A stretch of DNA of 6,270 nucleotides from JAUWCW01 sp030609125 [NCBI: Candidatus Rokuibacteriota bacterium] (lineage in GTDB: Bacteria; JAUVQV01). Under the pieces are notes generated by a model. The model did no database searches, was not told the origin of the DNA, and saw nothing but the letters and a program-made list of their open reading frames with translations. Numbering within the stretch: position 1 is the stretch's first letter; each line of letters opens with the position of its first letter. The DNA lies in the NCBI GenBank assembly GCA_030609125.1, contig JAUWCW010000122.1, forward strand, positions 1-6,270. The letters run 5' to 3'. The position numbers and the translations under genes were made by a program. Shown here one piece after another: positions 1 to 6,270 of this stretch.

Positions 1-58
1 TTCCTTGCGACCGGCGCCCTCAGGCGAAGTTTTCTCCAAGTTAAATTTGATGCTGCTT

Positions 59-91
59 GCGGGCGGTGAGATTCGACCGGGCTCCGCCCGC
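59..91. repeat. 8-bp inverted repeat, possible hairpin or terminator of an upstream gene
   Basis: GCGGGCGG (59-66) and CCGCCCGC (84-91) are perfect inverted copies separated by 17 bases. A transcript entering from the left could fold this into a GC-rich hairpin. It is followed only by CACATTATTCTT, not a true U-tract, so it is a weak candidate for an intrinsic terminator. No gene is recognisable in 1-58, and short open frames there end at 42-44 or 67-69. In such GC-rich DNA the repeat could be chance. Confidence 0.25.
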
Positions 92-172
92 CACATTATT
101 CTTCGCCCGGCAGTATCTGACAGTATAGAGGAAAGAGCACAAAGGAAAGAGGTGAATTGGGCTTTCCGCTGC

Positions 173-199
173 TTGACAGAGTATGTCCGCAGGGATAAT
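173..199 (+). promoter_or_regulatory. Possible sigma-70 promoter for the HD-GYP gene
   Basis: A perfect -35 hexamer TTGACA (173-178) is followed by GATAAT (194-199), a 5-of-6 match to the -10 consensus. The spacer is 15 bases, two short of the optimum, which weakens the call. Transcription would start near 206, leaving a leader of about 25 bases before the ATG at 230, and part of the stem-loop at 202-226 would fall around the start point. If the real start codon were the GTG at 152, this promoter would lie inside the gene and the call would be wrong. Confidence 0.3.
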
Positions 200-201
200 A
201 A

Positions 202-226
202 GGAGTCCCGTAGCGAGAGGGACTCC
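202..226 (+). promoter_or_regulatory. Perfect 8-bp stem-loop just upstream of the HD-GYP start codon
   Basis: GGAGTCCC (202-209) and GGGACTCC (219-226) are perfect inverted copies around a 9-base loop, ending three bases before the ATG at 230. The only Shine-Dalgarno-like stretch at a usable distance, GAGAGG (215-220), lies in the loop and the start of the right arm. The structure could therefore modulate ribosome access. As DNA it could equally be a dimeric repressor site next to the possible -10 at 194-199. It does not resemble the conserved core of the GEMM cyclic-di-GMP riboswitch. The repeat is directly visible; its function is inference. Confidence 0.4.
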
Positions 227-229
227 GCC

Positions 230-1933
230 ATGAGAGAATCGGGTTTTCCATCGGCCAGAAGGATCGCCGTCCTCTACGCCCTTTTCGGAGGATTGTGGAT
301 TCTCCTCTCCGACAGACTGCTGGCTGCAATGGTCTCGGACCCGCAGAGGATGAGCACCCTTCAGACCTACAAGGGCTGGGCTTTTGTCGCCGCCAGCACG
401 CTCCTTCTGTACGTCACCGTAAAGCATGAGTTCCGGGGCCGGCGGCGAGTGGAGGGGACGCTCCAGCGCGAGAGGGACTTCAGCACCACGCTGATCGAAT
501 CCTCCCCGGTGTTTTTCGTGGCCATCAACGCTGACGGCGAGACTCTCCTGATGAACGACATGATGCTGGGGACCCTCGGCTACACCTCCGATGAAGTGAC
601 GGGAAAGAACTACCTCGCCACCTTCGTGCCCGAGGCCGACCGGGAAATGCTCTCCCGCGTCTTCAGGAGCCTCGTGACCGAAAGAAAGCCGACGGTCAAC
701 GAAAACCGCGTGCTGGCCAAGGATGGCCGGGAGCGGCTCGTGGAGTGGCACGGGCGACCTGTTTTCAAGGAGAACGGGGATTTTGACTACTTCTTCGGCA
801 TGGGCATAGACATCACCGGGAGGCGGCAGGCGGAAGTTCAGGCGAAGCGGCGCCTGAGGCACCTGGCGGCGCTGCACGCGGTGGACATGGTCATCACCGC
901 CAGCCTGGACCTGAACGTCACCCTCAACGTCTTTCTCGAACAGCTCACTTCCCACCTCCACGTCGATGCCGCCGCGGTGCTCTCGTTCAGCTCCCACACC
1001 CAGACCCTGACGTTCTCCGCCGGCAGCGGCTTCCGAACCGACCGCGTCCAGCGCACCCTTCACCGACTCGGCGAGTGCAGCGCCGGCAAGGCCGCCCTTG
1101 ATCGAAGGACGGTGGCCGTCTTCAACCTTCCTCAAGATCCGGAGGACCACGACTGCACCCGGCTGGTGTCCGACGAGGGGTTCATCTCCTACTTCGCGGT
1201 GCCGCTCATTTCCAAGGGGAATGTCAACGGTATCCTGGAGGTTTACAACCGCTCACCTCTGGAGCCCGATCCGGAGTGGGTGGGGTTTCTGGAGTCCATG
1301 GCACTCCAGGCCGCCATAGCGATAGACAATGCCACCCTCTTCAGGGACATTCAGCGGGCCCATTCCGAACTCACCATGGCGTACGACACGACCCTGGAAG
1401 GGTGGGCGCGAGCCCTGGAAATCCGGGACAAACAGACCAAGGGGCATACCGAGCGGGTGGTGGAGACGACCCTTCGCGTCGCCCGCGCCATGGGCATGGA
1501 AGAGGAGGAGCTTGTTCACATCCGCCGGGGCGCCCTGCTGCACGACATAGGCAAAATGAGCATTCCCGATTCCATTCTCTTCAGTGAAGGACCCCTCAGC
1601 GAGAAGGAGCGGCGGATCATGGAGAGCCACCCGCGCCACGCGTTCGACCTGCTCTCACCGATCCGCTACCTGCGCCCCGCGCTGGACATACCTTACTGTC
1701 ACCACGAGAAGTGGGACGGAACCGGATACCCGCGCCGACTCAAGGGAGAGCAGATCCCCCCGGCGGCCCGCATCTTCGCTGTCGTCGACGTCTGGGACGC
1801 CCTCCTCAACGAGCGCCGCTACCACTCCGCCTGGCCCCGGGAGAAGGCCCGTGAGCACATCAGGTCCCTGGCGGGAAAGCATTTCGACCCGGAGGTGGTG
1901 GAGGTCTTTTTCAGGCTCGAGCAGGACGGGTGA
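230..1933 (+). CDS. Membrane-anchored PAS-GAF-HD-GYP signalling protein (putative cyclic-di-GMP phosphodiesterase)
   Basis: A 567-residue sensor/effector predicted to hydrolyse cyclic-di-GMP at the inner membrane. The N-terminus has two hydrophobic segments (about 11-34 and 46-65). They contain the GLWILLSDRLL and TYKGWAF motifs typical of a two-helix module that precedes PAS domains. A PAS domain follows (about 82-200, ending GMGIDITGRRQAE), then a GAF domain (about 218-372), then HD-GYP (about 385-565). The catalytic signatures are intact: GHTERV (405-410), HDIGK (438-442), HHEKWDGTGYP (491-501) and the VVDVWDAL segment (518-525). There is no GGDEF or EAL domain. I chose the ATG at 230 because the conserved membrane module begins right there and GAGAGG lies 9 bases upstream. 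The frame stays open back to the left edge, and the GTG at 152, preceded by AGGAAAGA, is a weaker alternative. The bound signals cannot be read from sequence. The 3' end overlaps egtD tail to tail by 23 bp. Confidence 0.9.
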   Translation: MRESGFPSARRIAVLYALFGGLWILLSDRLLAAMVSDPQRMSTLQTYKGWAFVAASTLLLYVTVKHEFRGRRRVEGTLQRERDFSTTLIESSPVFFVAINADGETLLMNDMMLGTLGYTSDEVTGKNYLATFVPEADREMLSRVFRSLVTERKPTVNENRVLAKDGRERLVEWHGRPVFKENGDFDYFFGMGIDITGRRQAEVQAKRRLRHLAALHAVDMVITASLDLNVTLNVFLEQLTSHLHVDAAAVLSFSSHTQTLTFSAGSGFRTDRVQRTLHRLGECSAGKAALDRRTVAVFNLPQDPEDHDCTRLVSDEGFISYFAVPLISKGNVNGILEVYNRSPLEPDPEWVGFLESMALQAAIAIDNATLFRDIQRAHSELTMAYDTTLEGWARALEIRDKQTKGHTERVVETTLRVARAMGMEEEELVHIRRGALLHDIGKMSIPDSILFSEGPLSEKERRIMESHPRHAFDLLSPIRYLRPALDIPYCHHEKWDGTGYPRRLKGEQIPPAARIFAVVDVWDALLNERRYHSAWPREKAREHIRSLAGKHFDPEVVEVFFRLEQDG

Positions 1934-2957
1934 GCGGCTTCCGGACGCGCCAGAGGGAGTCGAGGAACCAGCCGCGCGAGTCGCTCAGTTCGTCGACAAC
2001 CTCGAACCCCGTCTCGTCCGCCATGGAGGAGATTTCCCCGGCCAGGTACTTGTGGGAGACCTCGGTGTGTATCGGCTCCCACGCTTCGAAGGCGAAGCGC
2101 ATCCTGAGACTCTCGATGAAGACGGACTGTCTCGCGCGGCTCACGAGGTAGCTCTCCATGGCTCCGGAAAGGACGTCGTACGTGCTGTAGTGCTCGAAGC
2201 TCTCCACCTGGAAGTCCCCTCCGAGCTCCCGGTTGATGCGCCGCAGGAGGTTGAGATTGAACTGTGCCGTCACTCCCTGCGGGTCGTTGTAGGCCCGCAT
2301 CAGCAGCTCGATGTCCTTTTTCAGGTCGAATCCGATGAGCACCAGGTCTCCGTCGTTGAGGGAGCTCCAGAGGCTGCGCAGGAAGACTCTCGCCTCCGAG
2401 GCGTTGAAGTTCCCGATGTTGGAGCCGAGAAAGAGCACCACGTTGCGCCGGTCGTTGAGGCCCGAAAGCCAGGCGAGCCCGTCGAAGTACTCCGAAACGA
2501 GTCCGTCGATCGGCACCCCGGGCAGGTCCCTCCCGCAAATGTCGATGAGCTGCAGCAGGGCCGGTTTGCAGATGTCGATGGGCACGTACCGGAAATCCAG
2601 GTCCCTCTCGCAGAAGTGGCTCAGCAGGACCCGGGTCTTCTTGCCGTCTCCGGCCCCAAGCTCCACGAGGTTGAAGGCCTGCCCGCCAAGATGGCCCGTG
2701 ATCCTCTCCCTGTGCGTTTCCAGGATCTCCAGCTCGCAGTCGGTGAGGTAGTATTCCGGCAGGTCCATGATCTTCTGAAAGAGCCGGTTCCCCTCTTCGT
2801 CGTAGAAGTGCCTGCTCGGAATCGACTTGGGGGAGCGGAAAAAACCGAGGAGCACGTCCCTGGCAAACTGCTGCCGGCCCTTTTCTTCCTGCCTCTCGCC
2901 GTAATCGAGGACCCGGCAGGTGCGGTCCGAGAGCCCCTTGTCTGCTTTCCCGCTCAT
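1911..2957 (-). CDS. egtD: L-histidine N-alpha-methyltransferase EgtD (hercynine synthase)
   Basis: A 348-residue SAM-dependent methyltransferase that converts histidine to N,N,N-trimethylhistidine (hercynine), the first step of ergothioneine synthesis in the cytoplasm. Family marks in order: the tyrosine pair and TDCELEILE (69-80); SAM-binding ELGAGDGKKT (99-108); PIDIC with Asp128; FLGSNIGNF (176-184), whose Asn183 matches the substrate-binding Asn of mycobacterial EgtD; AYNDPQGVTAQFNLNLLRRI (222-241); and HTEVSHKY (297-304), whose Glu299 and Ser301 match the Glu/Ser that select histidine. Length is close to the usual 320 or so residues, with a modest N-terminal extension. The ATG at 2957 lies 18 bases after the upstream MES stop. 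That gap shows no good Shine-Dalgarno sequence, which suggests translation coupled to the upstream gene. No EgtB or EgtC homologue is visible, which fits the neighbouring MES taking over sulfur insertion. Confidence 0.95.
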   Translation of the reverse strand: MSGKADKGLSDRTCRVLDYGERQEEKGRQQFARDVLLGFFRSPKSIPSRHFYDEEGNRLFQKIMDLPEYYLTDCELEILETHRERITGHLGGQAFNLVELGAGDGKKTRVLLSHFCERDLDFRYVPIDICKPALLQLIDICGRDLPGVPIDGLVSEYFDGLAWLSGLNDRRNVVLFLGSNIGNFNASEARVFLRSLWSSLNDGDLVLIGFDLKKDIELLMRAYNDPQGVTAQFNLNLLRRINRELGGDFQVESFEHYSTYDVLSGAMESYLVSRARQSVFIESLRMRFAFEAWEPIHTEVSHKYLAGEISSMADETGFEVVDELSDSRGWFLDSLWRVRKPLTRPARA

Positions 2958-2975
2958 AGCCGGAGAATATCAGCT

Positions 2976-5900
2976 TCAGCGGCAGGAGACAAAGCGCACC
3001 ATCGCCCCCTGGTCGCTCAGAACGGAGGCGACCGCCGACGCGAACCGGTCCGCCTCCTCCGGGGTGGTCTCCCATCCGAGGGAGATGCGAATGGAGCAGT
3101 GGGCATCCTCCTCGCTGAGCCCCATGGCGAGCAGCGCCCGGGACGGCTCGGGGACGCCGGCGTGGCAGGCCGATCCCGAGGAGAGGGCGATGCCCAGGCG
3201 ATCGAGGGCCAGCACCAGGGATTCCCCCCTTATGCCGGGGAGGGTCATGTTGAGCGTGTTCGGCAGACGATCACGCTTCGGCCCGTTGAGGCGGGCCCGC
3301 GGCGCCAGGCGGCGCAGATCGTCCTCGATCCGGTCGCGGATTTTCCGCACGTCGCTCATGCGGGGAAGGCTGGAGAGGGCCACTTCGGCGGCCCGCCCGA
3401 TGCCGATGATCCCCGAAACATTTTCGGTCCCGGACCTCAGCCCCCGCTCCTGCCCTCCCCCGTGGACCAGAGGCTCCAGGTCCACGCCCTTGCGGACATA
3501 GAGGACGCCGATGCCCTTGGGGCCGTGAAACTTGTGGCCCGACAGGGTGAGAAGGTCCACCCCGAGGGCTTCGACGTCGACGGGGATCTTCCCCGCCGCC
3601 TGGACCGCGTCGGTGTGAAAGAGCACGCCGCGCTCCCGGGCCACCGCCGCCAGCTCGGCAACCGGCTGCACCGCACCGGTCTCGTTGTTGGCCGTCATGA
3701 TCGAGACGAGGCGGGTCTTTTCGGTGATCGCTTCCCGCAGGTCCTCCGTCCTCACCCTGCCCTGCCGGTCGGGCTTGAGGCGCGCAACGGAAAAGCCCGC
3801 CTTCTCCAGCCAGCCGCAGACACCGTGGATTGAGGGGTGCTCGATACCGCTGGTGACGATGTGGCCGCGCCCCGGCCCCGCGGCCAGGACGGCTCCCTTG
3901 ACGGCCAGGTTGTTGGCCTCCGACCCCCCCCCCGGTGAAGCAGACCCTCCGGGCGGTGGTGTTGAGAAGCAGCGCCACGCTCCGTCGCGCCGTTTCCACC
4001 GACCGGTGGGCCCTCTTGCCTTCCCCGTACAGGGCCGACGGGTTCCCGTAGACCTCCGCACTGTCGGCGAGGGCGGCCTCGACCTCGGGGTGCAGCGGCG
4101 TCGTGGCGTTGTGGTCGAAGTAGATGCGGCGCCTGGGCTTTCTCACCTCCCGCCCGGCGTCCACTTTGTACTCGCCGGCGCCGCCCGTACTTGCCCCTCC
4201 CGCCCCGGCGACACGCTCCACCTGGCAGAGCAGGGCCTTGTAGACGGGGAAGCCCGAGATCGGGTCGTACCTCTGCAGGTCCGTAAGCTCGTTCACGTTG
4301 GCCCGCCGCCAGGCCTCGGGCCCCAGGGGGCCGCCGCCCATGGCGCTCGCCTCGATCGCCCCCCGCACGATGTTGTCGGTCACGATGGCGTACATCTCCA
4401 CTGCTCCGCGGAGGGTGGAAAGCTTCACCCTGTCCCCGTCGGTTATCCCCCTCTCCCGCGCGTCGGCGGTGTTCAGCATGACGGTCGGGACCGGACGCTC
4501 CCTCCGCAGCTCCGGAACGCTGAGGTGAAGCCCGTGCAGGTCGTTCCCGGCCCGGGCGCCGGAGTTGAAAACGAGCGGAAACTCCCCTGTCAGGTCGGGC
4601 CGCGACAGGGGGCTCTCACCCGGCTCGGTGTAGACCGGCAGCGCCTCGTAGCCGTGCTCCTCCAGGATGGACGAGGCTATTTCGAGCTTCCCCGACGGGG
4701 TGTCGAAGCCCGGCAACCCTTGCGGGCGCAGGAGCCCTTTTTCCCACTTTCTGTACTGCATCATCGCCGCGGGCTTGCTCACCGTCCCCCCCGCCGCCCG
4801 GACCTCCTCGAGGGTAAAGCCCGTACCCTTCAGAACGTGGCGGAGAATTTCCTCCTCGCTCTGGGGATAGAGGTGCCCGTAGCCGAGCCGCCGGGCGAGC
4901 TCGGCCAGGATCAGGGTGTCGCTGCGAGCCTCCCCCACGGGCTCGATCACACGCTCACGGAGGCGGAAGACAGAGCCGTAGACCATGTAGGACTCTATCT
5001 CGTAGTAGGTGGCCGCGGGCAGAACGATGTCGGCGTACGCCGCGTCGGCCGTAAGCTGCCGATCGACGCAGACCATGAAGTCCAGGCCGGCCAGGGTCTT
5101 GTGCCACAGGGAGGACTGCGGCCACGACGAGATCATGGAGGCTCCCAGGGTGAGGAGCAGGCGGATGGGGTAGGGATCCTTTTCCAGGACCGCCCGGGGG
5201 AGGATGCCGGCGTGGAATTCACCCCGGTACTTCGTGTAGACCGGAAAGTCGTTGTGTCCCGCGGCGCGACGTGTGTCCGGGTTGGCCACATGCCCCTCCC
5301 GGTTGACACGGATCCTTCCCTCTTTCATGGCGAAACAGTGCCCCCCGGGCACGTCGAGCTGACCCGCCAGGGCCCAGAGGACCATGGTTGCCCGGATCGC
5401 CTGCACCGCCCCGTCACTGTACTCGAGCCCGCTGTACATGACCGGCGCGGCCCCGTCGGCCGACGCGATCCTCCTGGCCAGATCCCGGACCGTCCCGGCC
5501 GGCACGCCGGTGATCCCCTCCACCACCTCCGGCCGGTACTGCTGAACGTGGCGGGCGAACTCCTCGAAGCCGACGGTCCACTTCCCGGCGAACTCCTCGT
5601 CCAGAAGCTCCTCCTCGATGAGAACGCCGCACAGGCCGAGGGCGAGGGCCCCGTCGCTGCCGGGGCGGATCGGAACCCATTCGGCGCCGGGGTACTGAGC
5701 CATCACCGTTCTGCGGGGATCGATCACCACGATTCTCGCCCCTCTCCGGTGGGCCTCCTGGATGCGCAGGAAGTCCATGGGCGGGCAGTGGGCCGCCGGA
5801 TTCTTTCCCCAGACGACAATCAGCTCCGCGTTCTCGATATCGCTGAACATGTCGATGAACATCCCCCCCATCGTCACGTGGGGGGCGATCATGGCGAACG

Positions 5901-6270
5901 AGACGTAGCAGAGGGCGCCCACCCCGAGGGTGTTGGGCGAGCCGAAGGGGAAGAGGACGCTCGCCGCGGAGGAGACGGCCACTCCTTTCGGCTGGTAGAT
6001 ATCGCAGAAGGAGAGCTCGAAGCTCCCGCTGCCGGTGTAGACGGCGGTCGCCTCCGGGCCGGATTCGCGCTTCACCCGCTCCAGGTTCTCAACGATCCGG
6101 TCGTAGGCCTCGTCCCAGCCGATGCGCTCGAACTCGAAGGTCCCTTTCGGCCCCGTGCGCCTCATGGGGTGCAGAAGCCTCTCCTTCGAGTAGACGATCT
6201 CGGGCGAAAGACGCCCCATGCGACAGATCATCCCCAGCGGCGAGCTGCTGTCGGCCTGCACCTCGGCGAT
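2976..6270 (-). CDS. Metallopterin-dependent ergothioneine synthase (MES): molybdopterin oxidoreductase-cysteine desulfurase fusion, 5' end outside window, one frameshift
   Basis: Predicted to move sulfur from cysteine onto hercynine without O2. Residues count from the codon at 6268-6270; about 1097 are visible after frame correction. Metallopterin module, about 1-685: Cys16 in GMICRMG, probably the last [4Fe-4S] ligand (earlier ones would lie beyond the edge); Cys121 in ALCYVS, candidate metal ligand; pterin-binding WGKNPAAHCP (154-163) and RPGSDGALAL (202-211); ADIVLPAATYYEIESY (413-428); C-terminal pterin-binding domain (about 564-680). A Gly/Ala-rich linker (about 688-711) leads without a stop into the NifS-like desulfurase (712-1097): YFDHNATTP (717-725), ANNETG (860-865), His885, PLP lysine Lys913 in SGHKFHGPKG, RSGTEN (945-950), and Cys1035 in SSGSAC. 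The frame breaks in a G run at 3924-3933; uncorrected, translation stops at 3271 and loses Lys913 and Cys1035. From memory, Caldithrix abyssi MES has this architecture, with an acetylene hydratase-like N-module. The fusion and motifs are seen; the substrate is inferred from egtD and that precedent. A formate dehydrogenase or thiosulfate reductase label would miss the fusion. Confidence 0.85.
3924..3933 (-). other. G10 homopolymer causing a one-base frameshift in the desulfurase module
   Basis: The + strand reads ten consecutive C here, so the coding strand has ten G. As given, the codons read F-T-G-G-G-V and continue into an unrelated frame. With nine G they read F-T-G-G-G-S-E-A-N-N-L-A-V, the conserved NifS-family segment. 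The conserved protein resumes in the other frame directly after the run and continues intact to the stop at 2976. Other C/G runs in this gene, such as the seven C at 5863-5869, do not disturb the frame. A sequencing or assembly over-call is the simplest explanation. A genuine mutation or slippage site is possible. Confidence 0.9.

What the first reader, a model, noticed from the sequence alone, without database searches (positions are those of the whole stretch)
1911..6270. Oxygen-independent ergothioneine operon: MES fusion followed by egtD
A metallopterin oxidoreductase module fused in frame to a cysteine desulfurase sits 18 bases upstream of egtD on the same strand. EgtD makes hercynine, and the fusion supplies both a sulfur donor (PLP desulfurase with intact Lys and Cys) and a metal-pterin centre to place sulfur on imidazole C2. 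This is neither the aerobic EgtB/Egt1 iron route nor the EanB rhodanese route. It matches the third route I recall from Caldithrix abyssi (MES). Automated annotation would probably give three unrelated labels and miss the pathway.
Basis: partly seen in the sequence, partly recalled or inferred. Interest (0 to 1): 0.9.

Follow-up and report, generated by a model that had tools for sequence, protein, structure and literature searches.

The report
Oxygen-free ergothioneine synthase gene pair
A bacterium from a barely sampled lineage carries the known two-part enzyme that can make the antioxidant ergothioneine without oxygen, next to the gene for the step before it; the kind of system is already published, and the assembled gene carries a reading-frame break that needs resequencing.

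Summary
On the minus strand lie a metallopterin module, a NifS/IscS-type cysteine desulfurase and, 18 bases on, egtD. The protein is 65% (metallopterin part) and 59% (desulfurase part) identical to a Calditrichota protein with the length and all nine residue numbers published for Caldithrix abyssi MES (JACS Au 2022). In a tree the window falls among 45 MES-type sequences. EgtD matches occur in 33 of 37 genomes with this enzyme, against 1 of 6 reached through an unfused relative. The window's genome has no EgtB at cut-off, and no EanB-like protein was found. Two corrections. The fusion is not in frame as assembled: a run of ten G (3924-3933) shifts the frame, although both halves align to the intact relative with no residue lost between them. 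The window is a whole 6270-base contig and cuts off about 32 N-terminal residues, with three of four Fe-S cysteines. One addition: this genome encodes a cbb3-type oxidase, strong O2-reductase matches occur in at least 16 of 37 carriers, and four carriers have EgtB at cut-off, so MES may not be confined to strict anaerobes. Verdict: new member of a known kind.

The parts
3928..6270 (-). MES N-terminal metallopterin (bis-MGD) module plus the first ~66 residues of the desulfurase, first frame; cut by the contig end, so about 32 N-terminal residues with three of the four Fe-S cysteines are absent
   Evidence: 781 aa without a stop; Pfam Molybdopterin 2.4e-39, Molydop_binding 6.4e-17, Aminotran_5 start 3.9e-06; 65% identical to residues 33-820 of L155; fourth Fe-S Cys and metal-ligand Cys present
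3924..3933 (-). run of ten G where the reading frame changes by one base inside the TGGGSEANN motif of the desulfurase
   Evidence: sequence, run coordinates; the 27 homologous sites that a pattern recovered among 45 loci (the window's own among the loci searched) have mixed codons, no comparable run
2976..3926 (-). rest of the cysteine desulfurase, second frame, ending RFVSCR-stop; PLP Lys, persulfide Cys, the Cys equivalent to 1097 and the C-terminal relay Cys present
   Evidence: 316 aa; Aminotran_5 1.1e-60; NifS model 381 bits for this part alone; 59% identical, ungapped, to residues 821-1136 of L155; residues
1911..2957 (-). egtD, L-histidine N-alpha-methyltransferase (348 aa), 18 bases after the fusion
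   Evidence: TIGR03438 299.6 bits, cut-off 290.9; Methyltransf_33 2.7e-97; best solved-structure match is EgtD 4uy5, E 2e-53

Best explanation
This is a two-gene unit for O2-independent ergothioneine synthesis. EgtD trimethylates histidine to hercynine (TMH). The fused enzyme is a metallopterin-dependent ergothioneine synthase (MES): its PLP desulfurase takes sulfur from cysteine as a persulfide, passes it along a Cys relay to the Mo/W bis-MGD centre, and the metal-sulfido group puts sulfur on C2 of the imidazole. Shown here: homology, conserved residues, gene order, co-occurrence, no EgtB at cut-off and no EanB-like protein found in this genome. Taken from the C. abyssi paper: the reaction, the relay (proposed there from mutants) and the need for both modules on one polypeptide. 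Inferred: that the gene works in this organism and that the frame break is a run-length error of the assembly rather than a mutation.
For: Tree placement; 65%/59% identity to a Calditrichota protein of 1136 aa with all nine residue numbers published for CaMES (paper PMC9516567); of 35 further fusion proteins aligned, 34 can be read at the desulfurase landmarks and keep the Fe-S, metal-ligand, PLP Lys and persulfide positions (exceptions told in the full report); EgtD matched in 33 of 37 genomes with MES against 1 of 6 reached through an unfused relative; EgtD in the fetched stretch next to MES in 18 of 37 loci, the most recurrent neighbour family by clustering, 14 loci against 6 for the next (ABC ATPases); EgtB below cut-off in the own genome; four of its five rhodanese proteins compared, none EanB-like.
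Against: The frame breaks inside the desulfurase, and the paper reports that both modules must be on one polypeptide, so the gene as assembled would make no active MES. The N-terminus with three Fe-S cysteines is not on the contig. No activity data. The genome encodes a cbb3-type oxidase, which does not fit the published statement that MES is exclusive to anaerobes. In 4 of 37 MES genomes no EgtD was found.
Confidence: 0.87

Rival explanations
1. The frame break is real: the gene is a recent pseudogene, or the G run is a slippage-prone (phase-variable) tract that switches MES on and off.
For: The run of ten G exists in the assembly; the 27 homologous sites that a pattern recovered have no such run; sulfur transfer was reported to need a single polypeptide.
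Against: No other stop or frame defect in either half, and the residues downstream of the break are 59% identical to the intact homologue. A second apparent frame change at a run of ten lies inside what looks like one coiled-coil gene (L165; my score called it unclear), while 17 of 18 scored same-strand runs of nine keep frame and the exception looks like a junction of two genes. This points to run-length miscalls or a general property of such runs, but the numbers are small: 3 of 5 scored runs of ten keep frame.
Confidence: 0.2
2. The fusion is an MES-clade protein with another heterocycle or betaine as substrate, and egtD is only a neighbour.
For: Unfused sister proteins exist, five of the six genomes reached through them having no EgtD match, so the fold is not tied to ergothioneine.
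Against: All eight positions that separate fused MES from the seven unfused proteins carry the MES residue in the window; EgtD is adjacent here and in 17 other loci; no EgtB at cut-off and no EanB-like protein was found in the genome.
Confidence: 0.05
3. The fusion is an assembly chimaera of a formate dehydrogenase or thiosulfate reductase type enzyme and a NifS.
For: The best NCBIfam labels are Fdh-alpha and PhsA, both far below cut-off, and the frame breaks within the desulfurase.
Against: Best solved-structure match is acetylene hydratase; the tree places the N-module inside the MES clade; the same domain order in one open frame occurs in many unrelated assemblies.
Confidence: 0.02

Closest known systems
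[quoted passage not shown]
   Same: Domain order, metal-ligand Cys, PLP Lys, persulfide Cys and C-terminal relay Cys, ending one residue after the relay Cys, co-encoded EgtD, no EgtB at cut-off and no EanB-like protein found in the genome
   Different: Frame break at a G run and missing N-terminus in this assembly; host with a cbb3-type oxidase; host in a phylum for which the search returned only two genomes
Acetylene hydratase (PDB 2e7z)
   Same: Closest solved structure to the N-module by sequence, E 1.6e-66
   Different: No desulfurase (recalled, and as the paper describes it); lies outside the MES clade
EanB and EgtB routes to ergothioneine
   Same: Same product and the same first enzyme (EgtD-type methyltransferase)
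   Different: EanB is a rhodanese and EgtB a non-heme iron enzyme; EgtB not at cut-off in this genome, EanB not seen among four of five rhodanese proteins compared
Unfused MES-like N-modules (L060, L061, L062, L066, L067, L029, L030)
   Same: Nearest relatives outside MES, metal-ligand Cys kept in all seven, 47-58% identical over aligned pieces
   Different: No fused desulfurase seen; EgtD in 1 of the 6 genomes; MttB or glutamate-synthase-like genes beside three of the seven. L061 and L066 are cut by a contig end

Membership tests
MES | N-terminal bis-MGD module that groups with MES-type fusions rather than with FDH, PsrA or ACH | tested here: met
   FDH-H served as outgroup by choice, support of the MES clade alone 0.71
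MES | Four N-terminal Fe-S cysteines (14, 17, 21, 48) | tested here: inconclusive
   fourth present; the first three lie beyond the contig end
MES | Metal-ligand Cys (Cys153) | tested here: met
MES | C-terminal NifS/IscS-type desulfurase with PLP Lys952, Cys1074 and relay Cys1135 | tested here: met
MES | Both modules on one uninterrupted polypeptide | tested here: inconclusive
   the assembled frame breaks at a run of ten G, with both sides otherwise intact; a run-length miscall can be neither shown nor excluded without reads
MES | Co-encoded histidine methyltransferase | tested here: met
   EgtD above cut-off, 18 bases downstream
MES | No EgtB or EanB in the genome (as in the paper's first set; 4 of 37 MES genomes here break it) | tested here: met
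   EgtB best 51.5 bits against cut-off 360; four of five rhodanese proteins compared, none EanB-like; genome 92% complete
MES | Turns hercynine plus cysteine into ergothioneine | not testable with these tools
   needs expression
EgtD (TIGR03438) | Score above the curated cut-off | tested here: met
   299.6 against 290.9 bits
Formate dehydrogenase / thiosulfate reductase | Score above the curated cut-off | tested here: not met
   Fdh-alpha 246 against 666, PhsA 241 against 694; about 32 N-terminal residues are missing from the query

The most novel reading that the evidence does not exclude
MES is not an enzyme of strict anaerobes only. It is used by microbes at oxic-anoxic boundaries that can also respire O2, and some of them keep both the O2-independent MES route and the O2-dependent EgtB route to the same product.
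Probability: 0.5. Interest if true: 0.45.

Novelty: new member of a known kind. Interest (0 to 1): 0.3.

Why it matters
It adds a member of the published third ergothioneine route in a lineage with two held genomes. The survey around it bears on why ergothioneine synthesis was invented several times: MES tracks EgtD, its unfused relatives mostly do not, and many MES genomes encode O2-reducing oxidases, contrary to the published statement that MES is exclusive to anaerobes. Eight positions that separate fused MES from its unfused sisters are concrete targets for finding the hercynine-binding residues. None of the 25 NCBIfam families shown for the N-module is an MES model, so such genes are probably labelled formate dehydrogenase or thiosulfate reductase plus NifS.

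Tried and rejected
Rejected: formate dehydrogenase, thiosulfate reductase or acetylene hydratase membership. Led nowhere: IMG/VR scan for MES, no relative; promoter and terminator scan, 0 promoter-like sites (0.2 expected) and 4 terminator-like (2.7 expected), none on the minus strand; betaine-type binding protein (OpuAC) in the own genome, none, although one relative (L026) carries such a transporter beside egtD-MES; naming the organism by rpoB, not resolved, and 4 of the 22 ORFs picked by my script gave no match to the query and were evidently not RpoB. The phylum search returned only G000 and one other genome, which has no MES.

Limits of the counts. MES matches in nine further Calditrichota genomes were not tested for EgtD, EgtB or oxidases. 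Many records are MAGs and misbinning can produce false co-occurrence. Of the 26 MES genomes with a COX1 match I classified 20, giving only the matched stretch, so the curated cut-offs are mostly not comparable and none of the ten CtaD/CyoB-like ones reaches them. For the G runs I examined 59 runs of nine or more: 30 unclear, 1 at an edge, 5 with a strand change, 23 scored on one strand; about six runs close to contig ends were left out. An earlier, cruder score without an 'unclear' class called L165 a change; the stricter one calls it unclear. Two of the three scored frame changes, L174 and L222, look like junctions of adjacent genes on inspection. EanB was judged only through proteins found by PF00581; four of five were compared (for L141 only the rhodanese stretch), the fifth (L144) was not. 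The naming of 6h98 and the 6kt/6kv entries as EanB is recalled. That L155 is C. abyssi MES is inferred from matching numbers only; its genome is given as 4.3 Mb, smaller than I recall for C. abyssi, so it may be a close relative.
Full report
The window is the whole of a 6270-base contig (G000:C61) of a 2.3 Mb draft genome in 376 contigs, 92% complete by the tool's figure. A phylum search returned only two genomes, this one and one other of the same order, which has no MES. On the plus strand lies a PAS-GAF-HD protein gene (2-1933), overlapping the end of egtD by 23 bases in a convergent layout. Everything in the finding is on the minus strand.

Observation. Read from 6270 downwards, a 781-residue stretch without stops holds the Molybdopterin and Molydop_binding domains and the start of an Aminotran_5 domain. 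At 3924-3933 the minus strand has a run of ten G, and the rest of the desulfurase, 316 residues ending RFVSCR, lies in another frame. So 'fused in frame' is not what the assembly shows. The two parts align to residues 33-820 and 821-1136 of an intact homologue (L155), 65% and 59% identical, with nothing missing between them. A pattern recovered this site in 27 of 45 loci, and all 27 have mixed codons there without a comparable run; the other loci, the window among them, do not fit the pattern and were not inspected this way. egtD starts 18 bases after the stop of the fusion.

Other runs. I looked at runs of nine or more G or C in this genome. Of 59 runs, 23 could be scored on one strand: 17 of 18 runs of nine and 3 of 5 runs of ten keep frame; 30 were unclear. 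Of the three exceptions, L222 (nine) and L174 (ten) look like junctions of two genes, leaving the window. A further run of ten, unclear by the score, lies at an apparent frame change inside what looks like one coiled-coil gene (L165). This mildly favours run-length trouble at long runs and proves nothing.

Identity. The EgtD protein scores 299.6 bits against a cut-off of 290.9 for TIGR03438 and its best solved match is EgtD 4uy5. The N-module scores far below the cut-offs of formate dehydrogenase and thiosulfate reductase; its best solved match is acetylene hydratase. In a tree of 105 sequences it falls in a clade of 45 MES-type sequences (support 0.71), four of which are cut by a contig end before or just inside the desulfurase; with five unfused proteins the support is 1.0; acetylene hydratase and PsrA lie outside, and formate dehydrogenase H was the chosen outgroup. 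Nearest neighbours of the window are L063, L049 and L048 (support 1.0); deeper nodes within the clade are partly weak.

Comparison with the published enzyme. The C. abyssi paper (PMC9516567; parts 1-3 of 6 read, passages) gives CaMES as 1136 residues with Fe-S cysteines 14, 17, 21, 48, metal ligand Cys153, PLP Lys952, and Cys1074, Cys1097 and Cys1135. I take it as C. abyssi MES or a close orthologue; the tool does not name it. The window has every one of these residues that its contig covers. Thirty-five further fusion proteins were aligned. One (L056) reads N over part of the desulfurase and cannot be judged there. In the other 34 the landmarks are kept, with these exceptions: Cys1097 is replaced in L037 and L044 (the paper found a two-fold effect only), and in L035 the relay Cys lies beyond a stop that I read past.

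Co-occurrence. Of 37 genomes with MES (four of them with the gene cut by a contig end before or just inside the desulfurase), 33 have an EgtD match, 29 above the cut-off, and 4 have none (G088, G097, G103, G115); of 6 genomes reached through unfused relatives, 1 has EgtD. In the control genomes of that search EgtD rang once, below cut-off. EgtD lies within the fetched stretch next to MES in 18 of 37 loci, on the same strand in 15, in both orders. In a clustering of 396 ORFs it was the most recurrent neighbour (14 loci), ahead of ABC ATPases (6 loci). EgtB reaches its cut-off in 4 of the 37 (G078, G085, G086, G112) and appears in two pieces below cut-off in a fifth, G091. The window genome's best EgtB match is 51.5 bits. 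Its eight PF00581 matches fall in five proteins; of the four compared with solved structures, three match thiosulfate sulfurtransferases or other rhodaneses best and one NADH-oxidase/CoA-disulfide-reductase type proteins; one of them touches the EanB entries weakly, over part of the chain.

Oxygen. A COX1-family match over the Pfam cut-off is found in 26 of 37 MES genomes and in 6 of 6 genomes with unfused relatives. I classified 20 of those 26: 10 match CtaD or CyoB best, 5 are ccoN above cut-off, the window genome's own is ccoN-like at 467 bits (matched stretch only; cut-off 583) and is followed by FixO and cbb3 subunit III domains, 2 are weakly ccoN-like and 2 match no NCBIfam family at 1e-20. 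Thus at least 16 of 37 encode a strong O2-reductase candidate; 11 of 37 have no COX1 match. The paper states that MES occurs exclusively in anaerobes. Misbinning in MAGs is the main caveat. Searches of the held library for MES found the discovery paper, one review that covers MES (passages read) and one unrelated paper (listings); searches listed no study of the co-occurrence of MES with EgtB or oxidases, judged from titles and abstract starts only.

Mechanism. Shown by sequence: the parts, the residues, the order, the co-occurrence. From the paper: cysteine as sulfur donor, a persulfide relay supported by mutants, a proposed metal-sulfido transfer to hercynine, intramolecular transfer only. 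Inferred: that the same happens here. Eight positions are at least 97% conserved in 36 MES sequences and differ in all seven unfused sisters (125, 362, 380, 393, 467, 526, 527, 535 in L155 numbering), and the window carries the MES residue at all eight; they are candidates for substrate recognition.

Verdict. The find is a new member of a known kind, with a frame break to be resolved and a possible widening of the known host range.

Noticed in passing
L060, L061, L062, L066, L067, L029, L030: Unfused sister proteins of the MES metallopterin module, metal-ligand Cys kept, five of six genomes without an EgtD match; L060 sits next to an MttB-like methyltransferase, L061 and L062 next to glutamate-synthase-like genes. 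Function unknown; perhaps sulfur or betaine chemistry.
   Followed up: partly
G078, G085, G086, G112 (loci L031, L038, L039, L065): MES-carrying genomes that also have EgtB above the curated cut-off, i.e. both an O2-dependent and an O2-independent route, unless misbinned.
   Followed up: partly
L026 11716-13973: A betaine-type ABC transporter (OpuAC binding domain fused to permease, plus ATPase) directly upstream of egtD-MES; an ABC ATPase also follows MES in L049.
   Followed up: partly
window 2-1933: PAS-GAF-HD protein gene convergent with egtD, overlapping its end by 23 bases; probably a cyclic-di-GMP phosphodiesterase-type sensor.
   Followed up: no
L165 about 1501-1510: Another apparent frame change at a run of ten G inside what looks like one coiled-coil gene of the same genome.
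   Followed up: partly
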